Shown here in pieces: positions 12,527 through 18,189 of a DNA stretch of 64,000 bases. Below the pieces are notes generated by a model. The model did no database searches, had not been told where the DNA came from, and worked only from the letters and a program-made list of their open reading frames with translations. Made by a program: the position numbers and the translations under genes. Source of the DNA: Acidimicrobiales bacterium (GTDB taxonomy: Bacteria > Actinomycetota > Acidimicrobiia > Acidimicrobiales > Aldehydirespiratoraceae); assembly GCA_033344915.1 (NCBI GenBank), contig JAWPML010000001.1, forward strand, positions 1,174,369 through 1,238,368, written 5' to 3'. The number at the start of each line of letters is the position of its first letter. Position 1 is the first letter of the stretch.

Positions 12527-12562
12527 CCCGGGGGCGGATCACGACAGTGTCACGGCGCCCAC

Positions 12563-12568
12563 TAGGGT
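12563..12568 (+). promoter_or_regulatory. -10 hexamer before the lipoprotein-MFS fusion gene
   Basis: TAGGGT. Transcription would start near 12575, giving a leader of about 27 bases containing GAAGGA before the TTG start. Confidence 0.4.
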
Positions 12569-12601
12569 CGCCCGGGGCGGGAATCGGATGAAGGACACGG
12601 G

Positions 12602-15600
12602 TTGAGACGATCTCGGCACCTCGTATGGCTGTTCTTCGGGCTGATGCTCGGGGCGGCCGCGTGCAGCGGGGGCGACGGTCTCGACGGGGAGCGGCTGGCC
12701 ACCGACCCGGCGTCCCTGATCCCGGCCGTCGCCGAGTCGATGGGCGACGTCGAGAGCGTGCGCTTCGACCTCGAGCGCCGGGGCGCGCCGATCTACATCG
12801 ATCCGGCGGAGAGCATCGCCGTCGATGCGGTCACGGGCACGGTCACCGTTCCCGACCAGGCCGAGGCACTGCTCACGGTCACGATCGACGGATCGATCAC
12901 CACCCAACTCGGCGCGATCGCCGAGGGCGGCGAGACGCTGCTGAGCAACCCGGTGACCGGTGTCTTCGAGCCGCTGCCCGCCGGCTACGACCTGGATCCG
13001 CGGGAGTTCTTCGATCCCGTGGGCGGCTGGATGCCGCTGATCGAGGGGCTCCGGGACGTCACGTTCGTCGACGAGGTGAACCGGGGTGGGCCCCGCTATC
13101 TGCTTCGGGCCGTCGCGCCGGCCGCGCGGATCGGGGCCGTCACCGCCGGCCTGATCGACGACGAGGACGTGGCGGTCGATCTCTGGGTCCATCCGGTGTC
13201 GGCCCGGGTGACGGCCGTGGAGTTCGACACCGGCCCCGCGTCGGCGCGCACGACGTGGATCGTGGAGTTCAGCGAGTACGACGGCGAGGTCGCGGACACG
13301 GGGCGGTCGGCGTGGTCGGTCGCCGGATGGGCGGTTGTCGTCCTTCTCGGCGTCGGCCTGCTCGTCGTGATCGTCCGGCCCCTGATCGGTGCCCGGCCGG
13401 CACCATCGGTCGCGTCCCGCGGCCCGGAACCGGACGGGCCGCGGACAGACAACCGGGTTTCGCCTCGAGCCGTGCTGATCACGGTCGCCTTCAGCGTGTT
13501 CGTCGCCGCCGACGACCTGACCGTCGTCTCCACGATGCTGCGCCCGATCATCGGGGACCTCGGGCTCGTGCTGCCCGACGGCCTCGACGACGCCGCGTGG
13601 ATCGTCAACGTCTATCTGATCGCCTTCGTCGCCGTGATGCCGATCGCCGGCCGACTCAGCGACGTGATCGGCCGGCGCAACACCTTCATCGGGGCGTACG
13701 CGATCTTCCTCTTGGGCACGACCCTGATCCCGCTGATGGACTCGCTGGGTCCGTTCCTGGCGGCCCGGGTGCTCACCGCGATCGGCGGCGGGGCGATGGT
13801 GCCGGTCGCGCTGGCCGTCGTGGGCGACGCGTATCCGGAAGCCAAACGGGCGCGGGCCCTCGGCACCCTTGCCGCGATCGAGACGCTGGGGTGGGTCTGG
13901 GGACCGATGTACGGGGCGATCCTCGTGCGGTTCCTGTCGTGGGAGTGGCAGTTCTGGCTCAACATCCCCCTCGCGCTCGGCGGCATGGCGGCGGTCTGGT
14001 GGGCGCTGTCCGGCCACGATCAGGGCCGTCGGGCGACGACCGTCGATTGGCGCGGTGCCGTGCTGCTCACGTCGGCCCTCGTGTCGCTCAACCTCGCCCT
14101 GCTCGGCGACGCCGAGGTGCAGTCGGTCACCGGGTTCGACCAGCTGACGGGCGGGGACGGTTTCGACTTCCGCTGGCTCTACGCACTCGCGTTGCTGACG
14201 GGCGGTCTGTTCGTCTGGCACCAGCGGGTGGTCGCCGATCCGCTCATCGATCGGTCGGTGTTCCGGGGCCGCAGTCTCCGCGTCGCCCTCGGCGTGAACT
14301 TCATCGTGGGCGCGGCGCTCGTGATCTCGATGGTCGACGTCCCCATCTTCATCAACGCGGTCGAGATCGACCTGGAGGACTCGGCCGTGGCGGCCGGCTG
14401 GGTGCTGTCCGCCCTCACCGCGGCGATGGCCCTGACCTCGTACCTGGGCGGTCGGCTGACCACGGCCTCCGGCTACCGGCTCCCGATCGTGCTGGGGATG
14501 GGCGCCGCGGTGCTCGCCTACCTCCTCATGGGGCTGACCTGGGAGGCGGACACGCCGTATTGGGTACTGGGCGCCCAGCTCGGCCTGCTCGGCGCCGGCC
14601 TCGGCCTCGTGAGTGCGCCCACGTCGGCTGCCGTGGTCGACACCGCGGCGCCGGACAAGAGAGGCGCGGCGGCGGCGACGTTGATGGTCGTGCGGCTGAT
14701 GGGCCTCAGCGTCGGCCTGTCCCTGCTCACCGCGTGGGGCCTCGCCCGGTTCAACGCCCTGCGCGACGACATCGACCTTCCCCCCATCGACGACCCGGCG
14801 TTCGAGGACGCCGTGATCACCGCCCAGGGCGACCTCACGGCCACGGCCATCGCCGAGACGTTCCTGGCCGCGGCCGTCGTCGCCGCCGTCGGCCTCGGCC
14901 TCGCCTTCGTCATGCGCAACCGGGCCGAAACGCCCGACGACGACCCGACCGATCCACCCCCACCCCCAGAGAACACAGATTCCCCGGAGAACACGGAGAC
15001 AGGAGTCCCCATGCCTGGACTGCAGCGTCATCTCGTCCCCCTCGTCGGTGCCCTCGGCGCCCTCGTGCTGCTCTGTCTCGTCCTGGTCGGCGTGGCCTAC
15101 GCGCGCCTCGGCGACACGGCGGACGAACTCGCCCAGACCCGCGAAGATCTCGAGCGGGTCGAGGCCGGGGCGGCGCTCTACGCCTCCCAGGTGACCGGTT
15201 TCCAGGAGCAGCTCCTCGAACTCGAGCCCACGATCACCGGTGGGCTGGACGAGGCGATCGCCGGACTCGAGGAGTTCGCCGCCTCGTCCATCGACTTCGA
15301 GGTCACCATCGACGAGGTGGTGCAGATCGACACCGAGATCGTGCTGGACGAGCAGCTCGAGGTGCCGATCAACGAGTCCCTTCCCATCCAGGAGACGTTC
15401 GACACCAGGATCGAGGTGGAGACGCCGCTGGGGTTCAGCGTGCCGCTCGACGTCACAGTGCCGGTCGACATCGAGGTGCCGGTCGAGCTCGACCTCGACA
15501 TCGACGTGAACCAGACGGTCCCTATCAGCGCGACGGTGCCGGTCCAGCTCGACATCCCGATCGTCATCGACGTGAGCGAGACCCAGCTCGCCGATCTGGC

Positions 15601-15664
15601 CGAGTCGCTGGCCGCCGGGCTGCGTTCGCTCGAGGGCGTGCTCGCGGGGCTCGGCGGGGAGTAG
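12602..15664 (+). CDS. Fusion: LprG-like lipoprotein + MFS transporter + anchored beta-repeat domain
   Basis: 1020 residues in one frame. Part 1 (1-235): lipoprotein signal with Cys21, then a domain laid out like LppX/LprA/LprG lipid carriers (YDLDPREFFDPVGGWMPLI, VDLWVHPVSARVTAVEF, TTWIVEFSEYDGEV). One membrane span follows (about 239-259). Part 2 (286-772): MFS transporter with AADDLTVVSTMLRPI and motif A AGRLSDVIGRRNT, similar in kind to P55 (Rv1410). Part 3 (804-1020): after a Pro-rich linker, a membrane span (812-832), a short coiled coil and about 110 residues of alternating hydrophobic strands with repeated VPV/IPI motifs (VTVPVDIEVPVELDLDIDV), then a final helix. In mycobacteria LprG and P55 are separate partners moving triacylglycerides outward, so lipid export is a fair inference. 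The start is TTG with AAGGA upstream. An internal ATG at 15011 has its own ribosome site, so part 3 may also be made separately. Confidence 0.85.
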   Translation: MRRSRHLVWLFFGLMLGAAACSGGDGLDGERLATDPASLIPAVAESMGDVESVRFDLERRGAPIYIDPAESIAVDAVTGTVTVPDQAEALLTVTIDGSITTQLGAIAEGGETLLSNPVTGVFEPLPAGYDLDPREFFDPVGGWMPLIEGLRDVTFVDEVNRGGPRYLLRAVAPAARIGAVTAGLIDDEDVAVDLWVHPVSARVTAVEFDTGPASARTTWIVEFSEYDGEVADTGRSAWSVAGWAVVVLLGVGLLVVIVRPLIGARPAPSVASRGPEPDGPRTDNRVSPRAVLITVAFSVFVAADDLTVVSTMLRPIIGDLGLVLPDGLDDAAWIVNVYLIAFVAVMPIAGRLSDVIGRRNTFIGAYAIFLLGTTLIPLMDSLGPFLAARVLTAIGGGAMVPVALAVVGDAYPEAKRARALGTLAAIETLGWVWGPMYGAILVRFLSWEWQFWLNIPLALGGMAAVWWALSGHDQGRRATTVDWRGAVLLTSALVSLNLALLGDAEVQSVTGFDQLTGGDGFDFRWLYALALLTGGLFVWHQRVVADPLIDRSVFRGRSLRVALGVNFIVGAALVISMVDVPIFINAVEIDLEDSAVAAGWVLSALTAAMALTSYLGGRLTTASGYRLPIVLGMGAAVLAYLLMGLTWEADTPYWVLGAQLGLLGAGLGLVSAPTSAAVVDTAAPDKRGAAAATLMVVRLMGLSVGLSLLTAWGLARFNALRDDIDLPPIDDPAFEDAVITAQGDLTATAIAETFLAAAVVAAVGLGLAFVMRNRAETPDDDPTDPPPPPENTDSPENTETGVPMPGLQRHLVPLVGALGALVLLCLVLVGVAYARLGDTADELAQTREDLERVEAGAALYASQVTGFQEQLLELEPTITGGLDEAIAGLEEFAASSIDFEVTIDEVVQIDTEIVLDEQLEVPINESLPIQETFDTRIEVETPLGFSVPLDVTVPVDIEVPVELDLDIDVNQTVPISATVPVQLDIPIVIDVSETQLADLAESLAAGLRSLEGVLAGLGGE
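15000..15013 (+). promoter_or_regulatory. Internal ribosome-binding site and ATG inside the fusion gene
   Basis: CAGGAG is followed by TCCCC and an in-frame ATG at 15011 (residue 804), just before the third domain's membrane span. It is a better initiation site than the TTG at 12602 and could yield a separate 217-residue membrane protein. Confidence 0.45.
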
Positions 15665-15690
15665 GGAGCCCGGACTGTCAGCGGCGTTCG

Positions 15691-15696
15691 GTAGGG
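15691..15696 (+). promoter_or_regulatory. -10 hexamer upstream of comEA
   Basis: TAGGGT in the 105-base gap after the fusion gene. A transcript from here would have a leader of about 67 bases before the comEA GTG. Confidence 0.35.
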
Positions 15697-15769
15697 TGAG
15701 CGCAGCCACCTCCCCGCTGCGCTTCCCCGCGACCCACTTCCCCGTGAGCGTGAGGCGAGAGGCGCGGAC

Positions 15770-16441
15770 GTGGACGTGCGCAGAAGAGTTGGCGAGTGGT
15801 TCGACGCGCTCGCGGATCGGCTCGGGATCACCCCGTGGGCGATCGCGGTCGGCTTCGCGGCCGTCGTCGCGGCGGGGCTCGGCGCGTGGTGGGCCTTCGC
15901 CCCGCCGGCGCCACCACCGGCCGAGGAGGTCCTGCCCTCGGTCGGTGACATCGCCGTGGTGGTGCCCACCACCGCCTCCGCCGCGCCGACCACGATGCTC
16001 GTCCATGTCGACGGCGCGGTCATGCGGCCCGGGGTCCACGAGCTGGATCTCGACAGCCGGGTGGTGGACGCGGTCGACGCCGCCGGTGGGCTTCGGGCCG
16101 ATGCCGACCGGGCCCGCCTCAATCTGGCCGCGATGCTCAGCGACGGCCAGCGGGTCTGGGTCCCCGTCATCGGCGAGTCCGAACCGGATGTGGTCGGGCC
16201 CACCGGCGGCGGTCCGGCCGGGACCGCCGACGGCGCCGGCCCGGCGGGTGGCGTGGTCAACCTCAACACGGCCGATGCCGCCGAGCTCGAGACGCTGCCG
16301 GGCGTCGGCCCGAGCATCGCGGCGGCGATCATCCGCCACCGCGAGACCGAGGGCGCGTTCCAACGGGTGGAGGACCTGCTCGAGGTGGCCGGGATCGGGC
16401 CGAGCCGGCTCGCCCAGATCGAGGGACTGGTCGCGGTGTGA
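15770..16441 (+). CDS. comEA: Competence protein ComEA (SLBB plus helix-hairpin-helix DNA receptor)
   Basis: 223 residues: a short cytoplasmic start, one membrane span (about 25-46), an Ala/Pro/Thr linker, an SLBB domain (about 75-135: MLVHVDGAVMRPGVHEL, DAVDAAGGL, DGQRVWVPV) and a C-terminal double helix-hairpin-helix (about 162-223: VNLNTADAAELETLPGVGPSIA, DLLEVAGIGPSRLAQIEG) that binds double-stranded DNA outside the membrane. Length and order are standard. The GTG start follows a weak GAGAGGCG. The stop overlaps the comEC start (GTGA). Confidence 0.93.
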   Translation: MDVRRRVGEWFDALADRLGITPWAIAVGFAAVVAAGLGAWWAFAPPAPPPAEEVLPSVGDIAVVVPTTASAAPTTMLVHVDGAVMRPGVHELDLDSRVVDAVDAAGGLRADADRARLNLAAMLSDGQRVWVPVIGESEPDVVGPTGGGPAGTADGAGPAGGVVNLNTADAAELETLPGVGPSIAAAIIRHRETEGAFQRVEDLLEVAGIGPSRLAQIEGLVAV

Positions 16442-18189
16442 GAACCCACGCCGCCTTGCTCGGCGCCGCCCTCGGGGCATGGTTCGCCCCGACCGTCGCG
16501 TGGCCGGTCGTCGTCCTGGCGCTCACGGTCCTGGCGGCCGGACGACGGCGCTCGCTCCTGGTCGCGGGCGCCGTGTTCCTCGTTGCGTCCGGGGCCGCCA
16601 CCCACGCCACCCGGGCGATGGACTTTCCCGAGGCGGACACCTTCGACGGTTGGGTGACCCTCGTCGACGACCCGCGGGCGAGCGGGCCGGTCGGCGTGCG
16701 GGTCACCGTGCGCAGCGGGCGGCGGCGCCTGGTCGCGTCGGCCCACGGACCGGCGGCGGGCCGGCTGGACGATCGACTGGCGGGGGAGCAGGTACGGCTG
16801 CGGGGCACCATCCGGCCGGTGTCGCGGACGGACCGCCGGTCTCTCGACCGCCATGTGGTCGGCCGCATCACGGTGGAGGAGGTCGTCGACGGCCGCGGCG
16901 CCCCGCCCCTGCTGGCCGGCACCAACGAGATCCGCCGCCGACTCGCCTCCGGCGCGGAGTCCCTGTCACGCGCCGATCAGGCGCTCTTCCTCGGCATGGT
17001 GATCGGTGACGACCGGGACCAGACCGCGGCGACGGCCGACGACTTCCGGGCCGCCGGCCTCGGCCATCTGCTCGTCGTGTCGGGACAGAACGTCGCGTTC
17101 GTTCTCGCGATCGCGATGCCCGTGGCGGGCCGACTGCGGCCGGCCGGGCGCGCCGTCGTGCTGTTCGCGGTGCTCGGCGCCTTCGCGACCCTGACGCGCT
17201 TCGAGCCCTCGGTCCTGCGGGCGGTGGCGATGGCCGGGGTCGGCATCGGGTCGACAGCGCTCGGCCGGCCCGTCGAGGGGCGCCGCGGTCTGTCGCTCGC
17301 CCTCGCCGGGCTCCTGCTGGTCGACCCGTTCCTCATCCAGGTCGTGGCCTTCCAGCTCTCGGCATCGGCGACGGCCGGCATCGTCTGGCTCTCGGCGCCG
17401 TTGGGCGACCGGTTGCCGGGCCCGGGATGGTTGACCGTGCCCGTCGCGACGACGGTGTCGGCCCAGCTCGCCGTGGCGCCGGTGCTGGTGGGCATCTTCG
17501 GCCCGATGCCGTTGGCCGCGCTGCCCGCCAACGTCCTGGCCGGGCCGGCAAGCGGCGTCGTCATGATCTGGGGATGCACGGGCGGCCTCGTGGCGGGCGT
17601 GCTCGGCGGCACCGCGGCGCGGGTGTTGCACCTGCCGACCCGAGCCCTTCTGTGGTGGATCGGCGGCGTCGCCCGCGTGTCGGCCGCGGCACCGCCGGCG
17701 ATGCTCGGCGCGGCCGCGCTCGCCGTGATCGGGTTCGCGGTGCTCGTCGCGGTCGTCCGGCGGGGGTGGGGAGCGGCGGCGGCGACGGTCGTTGCCCTCG
17801 TCTGCCTGCAGTCGGTGCGCTCGGCCGCGGTGCCTGCCCCCGGCATCACCTCGCTCGGCGACGGTGTGATCGTCGCCCACCACGACGGCTCGGTGGTCCT
17901 TCTCGACGATCCCGGGTCGCCCCGACGGGTGCTCGAACAGCTGCGCCTGGCCGGCGTGCGGCGACCGGTCCTCATCGTCGCCCGTGACGGTGACCGCGCC
18001 GACGCCGACGCGGTGCTGGCGCTGCACGATCGGTTCGGCCCCGTGCCCGTGGCCGCGCCACCGCTCCATCGAGTGCCGGGTGGGCGCACCGTGCAGCCCG
18101 AGCAGGCGATCGTGGCCGGTGGGCTCACGGTCATCGTCGTCGAGGTGGAGCCGCGCCTCGAGATCGCGTTCGGGGAGGCGGATCCGTGA
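16438..18189 (+). CDS. comEC: ComEC/Rec2 DNA-uptake channel, nuclease-like domain degenerate
   Basis: 583 residues. An N-terminal membrane segment pair and DUF4131-like soluble domain (about 60-150) precede the Competence membrane domain (about 180-440) with GLGHLLVVSGQNVAFVLAIA and FEPSVLRAVAMAGVG. ComEC moves one DNA strand through the membrane during transformation. The C-terminal 110 residues lie where a metallo-beta-lactamase nuclease domain is expected, but the zinc motif HxHxDH is absent (VARDGDRADADAVL stands there) and the domain is short. Strand degradation would then need another nuclease. The GTG start overlaps comEA; the stop overlaps the possible upstream folP2 GTG. Confidence 0.9.
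   Translation: MRTHAALLGAALGAWFAPTVAWPVVVLALTVLAAGRRRSLLVAGAVFLVASGAATHATRAMDFPEADTFDGWVTLVDDPRASGPVGVRVTVRSGRRRLVASAHGPAAGRLDDRLAGEQVRLRGTIRPVSRTDRRSLDRHVVGRITVEEVVDGRGAPPLLAGTNEIRRRLASGAESLSRADQALFLGMVIGDDRDQTAATADDFRAAGLGHLLVVSGQNVAFVLAIAMPVAGRLRPAGRAVVLFAVLGAFATLTRFEPSVLRAVAMAGVGIGSTALGRPVEGRRGLSLALAGLLLVDPFLIQVVAFQLSASATAGIVWLSAPLGDRLPGPGWLTVPVATTVSAQLAVAPVLVGIFGPMPLAALPANVLAGPASGVVMIWGCTGGLVAGVLGGTAARVLHLPTRALLWWIGGVARVSAAAPPAMLGAAALAVIGFAVLVAVVRRGWGAAAATVVALVCLQSVRSAAVPAPGITSLGDGVIVAHHDGSVVLLDDPGSPRRVLEQLRLAGVRRPVLIVARDGDRADADAVLALHDRFGPVPVAAPPLHRVPGGRTVQPEQAIVAGGLTVIVVEVEPRLEIAFGEADP

What the first reader, a model, noticed from the sequence alone, without database searches (positions are those of the whole stretch)
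12602..15664. Single-chain lipid exporter: LprG-like lipoprotein, P55-like MFS transporter and anchored beta-repeat domain
In mycobacteria the lipid-carrier lipoprotein LprG and the MFS transporter P55 (Rv1410) are encoded by neighbouring genes and cooperate in triacylglyceride and lipoglycan export. Here the equivalent parts are one polypeptide in an organism that probably lacks mycolic acids. A third part, a membrane-anchored coiled coil plus about 110 residues of repeated VPV/IPI strands with alternating hydrophobic residues, is unlike anything in the LprG-P55 system and could form an elongated beta structure that bridges membrane and wall or shields lipid. This looks like a self-contained, previously undescribed lipid-moving machine.
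Basis: partly seen in the sequence, partly recalled or inferred. Interest (0 to 1): 0.82.

Follow-up and report, generated by a model that had tools for sequence, protein, structure and literature searches.

The report
Single-chain lipid exporter with beta stalk
One bacterial gene fuses a lipid-carrier protein, its membrane pump and a third, unnamed rod-like domain that are mostly separate genes in relatives, which points to a possible extra part of a lipid export system studied so far in mycobacteria.

Summary
Window 12602-15664(+) encodes 1020 residues: LprG-type lipoprotein, an added transmembrane helix, a 14-helix MFS transporter, then a second anchor with coiled coil and 95 residues of strictly alternating VPV strands. 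It is no sequencing error: the same chain occurs in two other genomes (93% and about 70% identical), forms one clade (100/100) and shows purifying selection. The first two parts pass tests for LprG and Rv1410/MHAS2168; the ion-lock acid is present in 87 of 87 distinct family transporters and 0 of 29 controls. The third part is an unnamed family of Acidimicrobiia and Chloroflexota, often fused to or beside the transporter, sometimes far away or without it; the two co-occur in both groups (not corrected for phylogeny). AlphaFold predicts a stem carrying one 45-residue-long beta-hairpin with a hydrophobic face; confidence is moderate alone and low in the full chain. No solved relative was found. 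Best reading: a tethered LprG-P55 lipid exporter with a third envelope component that receives, shields or positions lipid beyond LprG. Exporter kind is well supported; substrate and hairpin role are inferred. New variant of a known kind.

The parts
12602..15664 (+). fused gene, 1020 aa, TTG start
   Evidence: same chain in L107 and L108
12602..12664 (+). signal peptide ending in a lipobox-like LGAAAC, Cys21
   Evidence: sequence; Cys in at least 90% of 26 LprG rows
12665..13297 (+). LprG-type lipid-carrier domain, residues 22-232
   Evidence: PF07161; profile hits LprG structure 3mh9 E 1.5e-12; pLDDT mostly above 90
13310..13387 (+). extra hydrophobic helix TM0, residues 237-262, read as turning the chain back into the cytoplasm
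   Evidence: hydrophobic segment in 3 of 3 triple fusions, 0 of 61 separate LprG tails; helix in the model but with pLDDT only 45-51
13463..14911 (+). 14-helix MFS transporter of Rv1410/MHAS2168 type, residues 288-770; TM11 684-721 and TM12 734-770 are long
   Evidence: best PDB match 8pnl E 2.6e-39, Z 43.2, helices
13880..13882 (+). ion-lock acid E427 (MHAS2168 E157)
   Evidence: alignment; acidic in 87 of 87 distinct family rows, 0 of 29 controls
14693..14695 (+). ion-lock arginine R698 (MHAS2168 R426)
   Evidence: R in 84 of 84 distinct family rows not cut there, but also in 25 of 29 controls
14912..15013 (+). Pro/Asp-rich linker, residues 771-804, cytoplasmic by inference
   Evidence: sequence and mostly low pLDDT
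15014..15280 (+). second anchor: transmembrane helix plus coiled-coil-like stem, residues 805-893
   Evidence: hydropathy 2.9 at 811-829; one helix in models
15287..15571 (+). VPV module: alternating strands, predicted 45+45 residue beta-hairpin, residues 896-990
   Evidence: alternation; model of the part alone, pLDDT 70-93 by blocks; in the full-chain model 41-55 in all blocks of residues 901-990
15584..15655 (+). C-terminal helix, residues 995-1018

Best explanation
The gene encodes a single-chain version of the LprG-Rv1410 (P55) lipid exporter with a third module. Shown by sequence: the LprG domain, the Rv1410-type transporter with its ion-lock pair, an added hydrophobic helix that lets LprG sit outside and the transporter start inside, and a second anchor carrying a helical stem and a strictly amphipathic beta region. 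Inferred: the proton-driven transporter lifts a triacylated neutral or glycolipid (triacylglycerol being the best guess) out of the inner membrane; the tethered LprG takes it from the TM11-TM12 extension; the beta ribbon, standing on its stem and probably paired or trimerised through the coiled coil, presents a hydrophobic face that receives or shields the lipid on its way into the cell wall, or holds LprG at the exit. The fusion replaces the transient LprG-transporter encounter of mycobacteria by a fixed 1:1:1 assembly.
For: MFS: best solved relative is MHAS2168 8pnl, E 2.6e-39, next EfpA 1.1e-16; E or D at 427 in 87 of 87 distinct family rows against 0 of 29 other MFS, 7 of the window's genome and 22 of relatives. 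LprG: PF07161 and LprG structures top of the profile search. Linkage: 63 of 80 fetched loci have LprG in the locus, 42 of 80 have VPV. Topology: TM0 in 3 of 3 fusions, 0 of 61 separate LprG tails. Third module goes with the pair: in Acidimicrobiia VPV in 30, MFS in 41, both in 21 of 395 genomes, Fisher 6e-17; in the class around a Chloroflexota genome 50, 15 and 12 of 150, 1.3e-4. Six of the 20 Chloroflexota genomes behind the loci were searched: 6 of 6 carry one LprG-family and one VPV-like gene, in 5 of 6 on different contigs; in L181 VPV lies upstream of LprG-MFS. The window's genome has at least four matches to the TAG/wax-ester synthase family; 35 of 41 MFS-bearing genomes have the family against 231 of 354 others, p 0.008. 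Remm et al. 2023 leave open whether LprG passes TAG to further periplasmic proteins (section 13).
Against: VPV also occurs without the transporter by my threshold (9 of 30 Acidimicrobiia, 38 of 50 in the Chloroflexota class), so its task is not tied to LprG-Rv1410 alone; and 20 of 41 Acidimicrobiia with the transporter have no detected VPV. Of the 9 VPV-only Acidimicrobiia genomes 7 gave no PF07161 match. Co-occurrence counts are not corrected for phylogeny, genome size or incompleteness. The hairpin model has pTM 0.37, and in the full-chain model the beta region falls to pLDDT 41-55; TM0 is also low there. Regular prolines on the polar positions argue against simple extension into a wider sheet (my reading). 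No lipid cavity was measured. A whole-genome PF07161 search did not find the window's own LprG part, and the full-chain Pfam scan did not list it.
Confidence: 0.6

Rival explanations
1. The chain is an LprG-Rv1410 exporter, and the VPV module is only a structural stalk or oligomerisation rod (a coiled coil plus a beta-prism) that spaces or clusters exporters and touches no lipid.
For: A helical stem and a one-sided hydrophobic ribbon are what a two- or three-fold rod would need; the window's prolines all lie on the other face; homologues occur in genomes without this transporter.
Against: Does not by itself explain why this rod is fused to, or co-occurs with, this transporter in two phyla.
Confidence: 0.3
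2. The exporter carries a different triacylated lipid (an acylated phosphatidylinositol mannoside or lipoglycan type) rather than triacylglycerol.
For: LprG of mycobacteria binds PIM and LAM as well as TAG (PMC4709180, passages seen). TAG-synthase association is modest: 6 of 41 transporter-bearing genomes show no match to the family.
Against: The ion-lock residues of the TAG transporter are kept; genes for glycolipids were not looked for here.
Confidence: 0.3
3. It is an ordinary DHA2 drug exporter with unrelated fused domains.
For: The NCBIfam hits shown are DHA2 or other efflux families, none of them over its cut-off (25 of 48 shown).
Against: Far closer to MHAS2168 than to any other solved transporter; the ion-lock acid is absent from 29 of 29 control MFS; LprG lies in 63 of 80 loci.
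Confidence: 0.07
4. The fusion is an assembly or sequencing artefact.
For: L107 and L108 come from metagenome assemblies by their titles.
Against: Same fusion in three genomes, one clade 100/100; low Ka/Ks in the folded parts and a matching extra helix.
Confidence: 0.01

Closest known systems
LprG (Rv1411c) - Rv1410 (P55) of mycobacteria; MHAS2168 structure 8PNL
   Same: LprG-type lipoprotein and DHA2 MFS with 14 predicted helices, long TM11/TM12, and D35/R118 and E157/R426 equivalents
   Different: One polypeptide with an added hydrophobic helix; a third membrane-anchored beta module; host outside the mycolate bacteria (the latter recalled, not tested)
EfpA (8UFD, 8UFE, 8X6X)
   Same: Next-best MFS match by sequence and fold; 14-helix efflux transporter
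   Different: E 1e-16 against 3e-39; partners of EfpA were not examined here
LppX and LprF (PF07161 lipoproteins)
   Same: Same lipoprotein family in the profile search
   Different: Weaker match (5.4e-6 and 4.4e-5 against 1.5e-12 for LprG)
Long beta-hairpins of oligomeric pores and rings (lysenin, aerolysin, FliF RBM3, SpoIIIAG)
   Same: Listed by Foldseek for the hairpin model; that they are oligomers with long hairpins is recalled
   Different: All matches non-significant (best E 4.2e-3, to a phage tail protein; Z at most 6.2); no membership claimed

Membership tests
LprG (LppX_LprAFG, PF07161) | Match to the family profile above cut-off | tested here: met
   32.1 bits, cut-off 24, on residues 1-273 alone; not listed for the full chain in the same call, nor found for G000 in the whole-genome search
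LprG (LppX_LprAFG, PF07161) | Closer to LprG than to LppX/LprF | tested here: met
   profile of 26 relatives including the window: LprG 1.5e-12, LppX 5.4e-6, LprF 4.4e-5
LprG (LppX_LprAFG, PF07161) | Lipidation cysteine after the signal peptide | tested here: met
   Cys21 in LGAAAC; 3 of the 8 rows lack it, by reading the alignment
LprG (LppX_LprAFG, PF07161) | Hydrophobic lipid cavity | not testable with these tools
   model coordinates not available to me; domain modelled with pLDDT mostly above 90
Rv1410/MHAS2168 lipid transporter | Nearest solved relative is MHAS2168 | tested here: met
   fold second look Z 43.2, rmsd 3.4, 459 aligned, EfpA 40.3
Rv1410/MHAS2168 lipid transporter | Ion lock E157-R426, stated in Remm et al. 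to be absent from 46 other MFS | tested here: met
   E427 and R698; acid in 87/87 distinct rows (47 E, 40 D), R in 84/84 (3 cut); controls acid 0/29 though R 25/29 (one search counted 105 rows with duplicates)
Rv1410/MHAS2168 lipid transporter | D35 and R118 equivalents | tested here: met
   D305 and R389 in 87/87; not discriminating, D in 24/29 and R in 29/29 controls
Rv1410/MHAS2168 lipid transporter | 14 helices and extended TM11/TM12 | tested here: met
   predicted helices incl. 684-721 and 734-770; residue count of this stretch did not discriminate from controls
Rv1410/MHAS2168 lipid transporter | TAG transport | not testable with these tools
   needs experiment
A named sequence family for the VPV module | Convincing match to Pfam, NCBIfam, PHROG or a PDB sequence | tested here: not met
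   none over a cut-off; three Pfam families, each in 1 of 40 members, best 1.4e-4; best PDB hit E 0.0043, stretch starting in the helical stem
A known fold for the VPV module | Match to a solved structure | tested here: inconclusive
   best Foldseek E 4.2e-3, best Z 6.2

The most novel reading that the evidence does not exclude
The VPV hairpins pair or trimerise through their coiled coils into a roughly 150 angstrom tube or groove with a hydrophobic interior, which carries lipid from LprG outward through the cell wall: a dedicated trans-wall lipid bridge in bacteria without an outer membrane, used by the LprG-Rv1410 exporter and, in other lineages, by other exporters.
Probability: 0.2. Interest if true: 0.87.

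Novelty: new variant of a known kind. Interest (0 to 1): 0.62.

Why it matters
LprG-Rv1410 has, to my knowledge, been studied only in mycobacteria. Remm et al. 2023 say that it is unclear whether LprG hands its lipid to further proteins, and that earlier experiments failed to show physical interaction of purified Rv1410 and LprG. These genomes show the pair in another class and in a second phylum, give a natural tethered construct for structural work, and name a candidate third component, an unnamed protein family with a testable hydrophobic ribbon.

Tried and rejected
Sequencing error or missing stops: rejected. Drug exporter: rejected as main reading. VPV as a known fold: no significant Foldseek or VIA-align match, which does not exclude one; the viral fusion-protein sequence hits (best E 0.0043) start in the helical stem and are taken as chance. 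Shared partners beyond the cassette: in a rough gene call the next most frequent cluster is in 14 of 81 loci. VPV elsewhere in Actinomycetota: 396 genomes, 3 strong hits, all of the window's own order; three weaker ones (2.6e-7, 5.6e-4, 8.9e-4) were read as chance, the first lying in a repetitive frame opposite a called gene. Two full-chain alignments misaligned the separate LprG rows and were dropped (A4, A6); A7 (35 rows) was used. Comparison of A10 with A11 is circular because both hold the L181 protein; A8 against A11 (probability 97.4, E 9e-12) is the independent one, with the caveat of a repetitive pattern. In 16 of 80 loci, all Chloroflexota, my Acidimicrobiia-based LprG profile finds none in the fetched flank; the two of these genomes searched carry a family member. 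Three weak VPV hits (G315, G346, G384) were dropped before the count of 30. L145, L159, L185 and L186, counted as without VPV, are cut by the contig end. An earlier count of 105 family transporters held duplicates and was replaced by 87 distinct ones.
Full report
Observation. The reading frame at 12602-15664(+) is intact, 1020 residues from a TTG start, and lies in a 4.48 Mb one-contig genome. A second long frame at 12625-15699 and an antisense frame at 12539-16480 look like high-GC shadows: their translations are arginine-rich (my reading).

Parts. Residues 1-21 are a lipoprotein signal with Cys21. Residues 22-232 match the LppX_LprAFG family when residues 1-273 are scanned alone (E 1.3e-7; the full-chain scan in the same call did not list it), and a profile of 26 relatives finds LprG structures first (3mh9 1.5e-12; LppX 5.4e-6; LprF 4.4e-5). 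Residues 288-770 are an MFS transporter whose nearest solved relative is MHAS2168, the Rv1410 homologue (2.6e-39, next EfpA 1.1e-16; Z 43.2 against 40.3). Residues 805-1018 are a transmembrane and coiled-coil-like helix, a beta region and a closing helix.

Membership. From the printed alignment, MHAS2168 E157, R426, D35 and R118 correspond to E427, R698, D305 and R389. Position 427 is acidic in 87 of 87 distinct family members (47 E, 40 D) and in 0 of 29 other transporters, 7 from the window's genome and 22 from relatives; position 698 is R in 84 of 84 not cut there, but also in 25 of 29 controls; D305 and R389 do not discriminate. Remm et al. 2023 (PMC10576003; [quoted passage not shown] This supports membership in the Rv1410 kind; transport itself was not tested.

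Topology. Between LprG and the transporter lies a hydrophobic stretch (240-258, mean hydropathy 2.9). It is present in all three triple fusions and in 0 of 61 tails of separate LprG proteins. By inference it takes the chain from the outside, where a lipidated LprG must be, back to the inside, where the MFS starts; the model gives it as a helix with low confidence. The fusion thus seems to have come with a topological repair.

History. Of 80 named loci (the best 80 of 120), 2 (L107, L108) hold the triple fusion besides the window; 35 hold MFS fused to VPV, 34 of them with LprG as a separate gene in the locus; 4 hold MFS and VPV as separate neighbouring genes; L181, a Chloroflexota locus, has a VPV-like gene (weak, 28 bits) upstream of LprG-MFS; and 38 show no VPV nearby, four of them cut by the contig end. 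In a tree of 79 transporter rows the triple fusion is one clade (100/100), inside a starred 33-row clade with 25 MFS-VPV fusions, 3 triple, 3 separate and 2 without VPV, one of these two being a contig end. Other fused lineages branch near it in an unresolved part together with rows lacking VPV, so one or several origins of the MFS-VPV fusion remain open; all but one of the 20 Chloroflexota rows and a basal group of 6 Acidimicrobiia rows lack an adjacent VPV. Ka/Ks between the window and L107 is 0.04 to 0.22 in the folded parts and 0.5 in the TM0/linker stretch.

The third module. Over 40 sequences residues 896-990 alternate almost perfectly: most odd positions hydrophobic in every sequence, even positions mostly polar, acidic or proline; the exceptions at odd positions (905, 911, 917, 925, 931, 935, 941, 971, 977) are mainly in strand 1, and two even positions (906, 914) are hydrophobic in 35% and 62%. 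In the window this stretch has 23 acidic and 1 basic residue, and all its prolines sit at even positions. AlphaFold on 40 rows gives one helix, strands of 45 and 45 residues consistent with a single hairpin, and a closing helix (pLDDT 81.7, pTM 0.37); in the full-chain model, with a shallower alignment, the same elements appear, but residues 901-990 have pLDDT 41-55. At about 3.3 angstrom per residue the hairpin would be near 150 angstrom long (my arithmetic). No significant fold match was found, and no named sequence family.

Distribution. In 395 Acidimicrobiia genomes VPV was found in 33 (30 after dropping three weak hits), the transporter in 41 at E 1e-60, both in 21; about 3 expected. In 150 genomes of the class of a Chloroflexota genome: VPV 50, transporter 15, both 12, p 1.3e-4; without the two genomes already linked to my loci, 10 of 13, p 8e-4. 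Six of the 20 Chloroflexota genomes behind one search were searched, and 6 of 6 carry one LprG-family gene and one VPV-like gene, on different contigs in 5. The Chloroflexota and Acidimicrobiia VPV profiles match at 97.4% probability. Against a strict bond: 9 of 30 and 38 of 50 VPV genomes lack the transporter by my threshold, and 20 of 41 transporter genomes in Acidimicrobiia lack a detected VPV. None of these counts is corrected for phylogeny.

Substrate. The window's genome has at least four matches to the TAG/wax-ester synthase family (best 3.6e-136), and the family is somewhat commoner in transporter-bearing genomes (35 of 41 against 231 of 354, p 0.008). This is compatible with TAG but not decisive: mycobacterial LprG binds several triacylated lipids (PMC4709180, passages seen).

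Mechanism. Shown: identity of the first two parts, their order, the added hydrophobic helix, the amphipathic pattern, the linkage. Inferred: proton-driven lifting of a lipid from the membrane, capture by the tethered LprG, and reception, shielding or spacing by the VPV ribbon. I rate the exporter identity at about 0.9 and an active lipid role of VPV at about 0.4; the combined statement at 0.6 allows for either a lipid-handling or a holding role.

Literature. In the open-access library, searches for LprG with Chloroflex and LprG with Acidimicrobi returned no paper, and searches on Rv1410/P55/LprG operons (3 papers listed) and on LprG, MFS and fusion proteins (10 of 46 listed) showed no title or opening abstract that describes this arrangement (listings only). 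Remm et al. do not mention a natural fusion in the nine passages found by my terms. Papers outside that library were not searched.

Noticed in passing
L085, L086, L087, L088 (genus g129 of family f59): Stand-alone VPV genes lie near a gene for an ABC exporter (ABC_membrane + ABC_tran, tested for L087; the others by like start of the protein), so the module may serve more than one exporter type; a gene on the other strand lies between, so no operon is shown.
   Followed up: partly
L194, L196, L197, L198: In these Chloroflexota loci the stand-alone VPV-like gene is followed by a methyltransferase-like gene of one kind (Methyltransf_11, tested for L196; the others by like start).
   Followed up: partly
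L164:5723-5998, L168, L177 and others (cluster in 14 of 81 loci): A small gene with MSEYIE near its start sits directly before the Rv1410-type transporter in Anaerolineae loci where LprG is not adjacent.
   Followed up: no
L011, L012, L013 LprG genes: These LprG homologues lack the lipobox cysteine and keep a hydrophobic N-terminus, as if membrane-anchored rather than lipidated.
   Followed up: no
L142, L143, L184: Inside the mainly fused clade one lineage has MFS and VPV as separate genes, which suggests a secondary split.
   Followed up: no
G373 (L074 and L075): One genome carries two copies of the LprG / MFS-VPV cassette.
   Followed up: no
window 15770-18189: Two genes that look like ComEA and ComEC (DNA uptake), by reading the translations only, follow the fused gene.
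   Followed up: no
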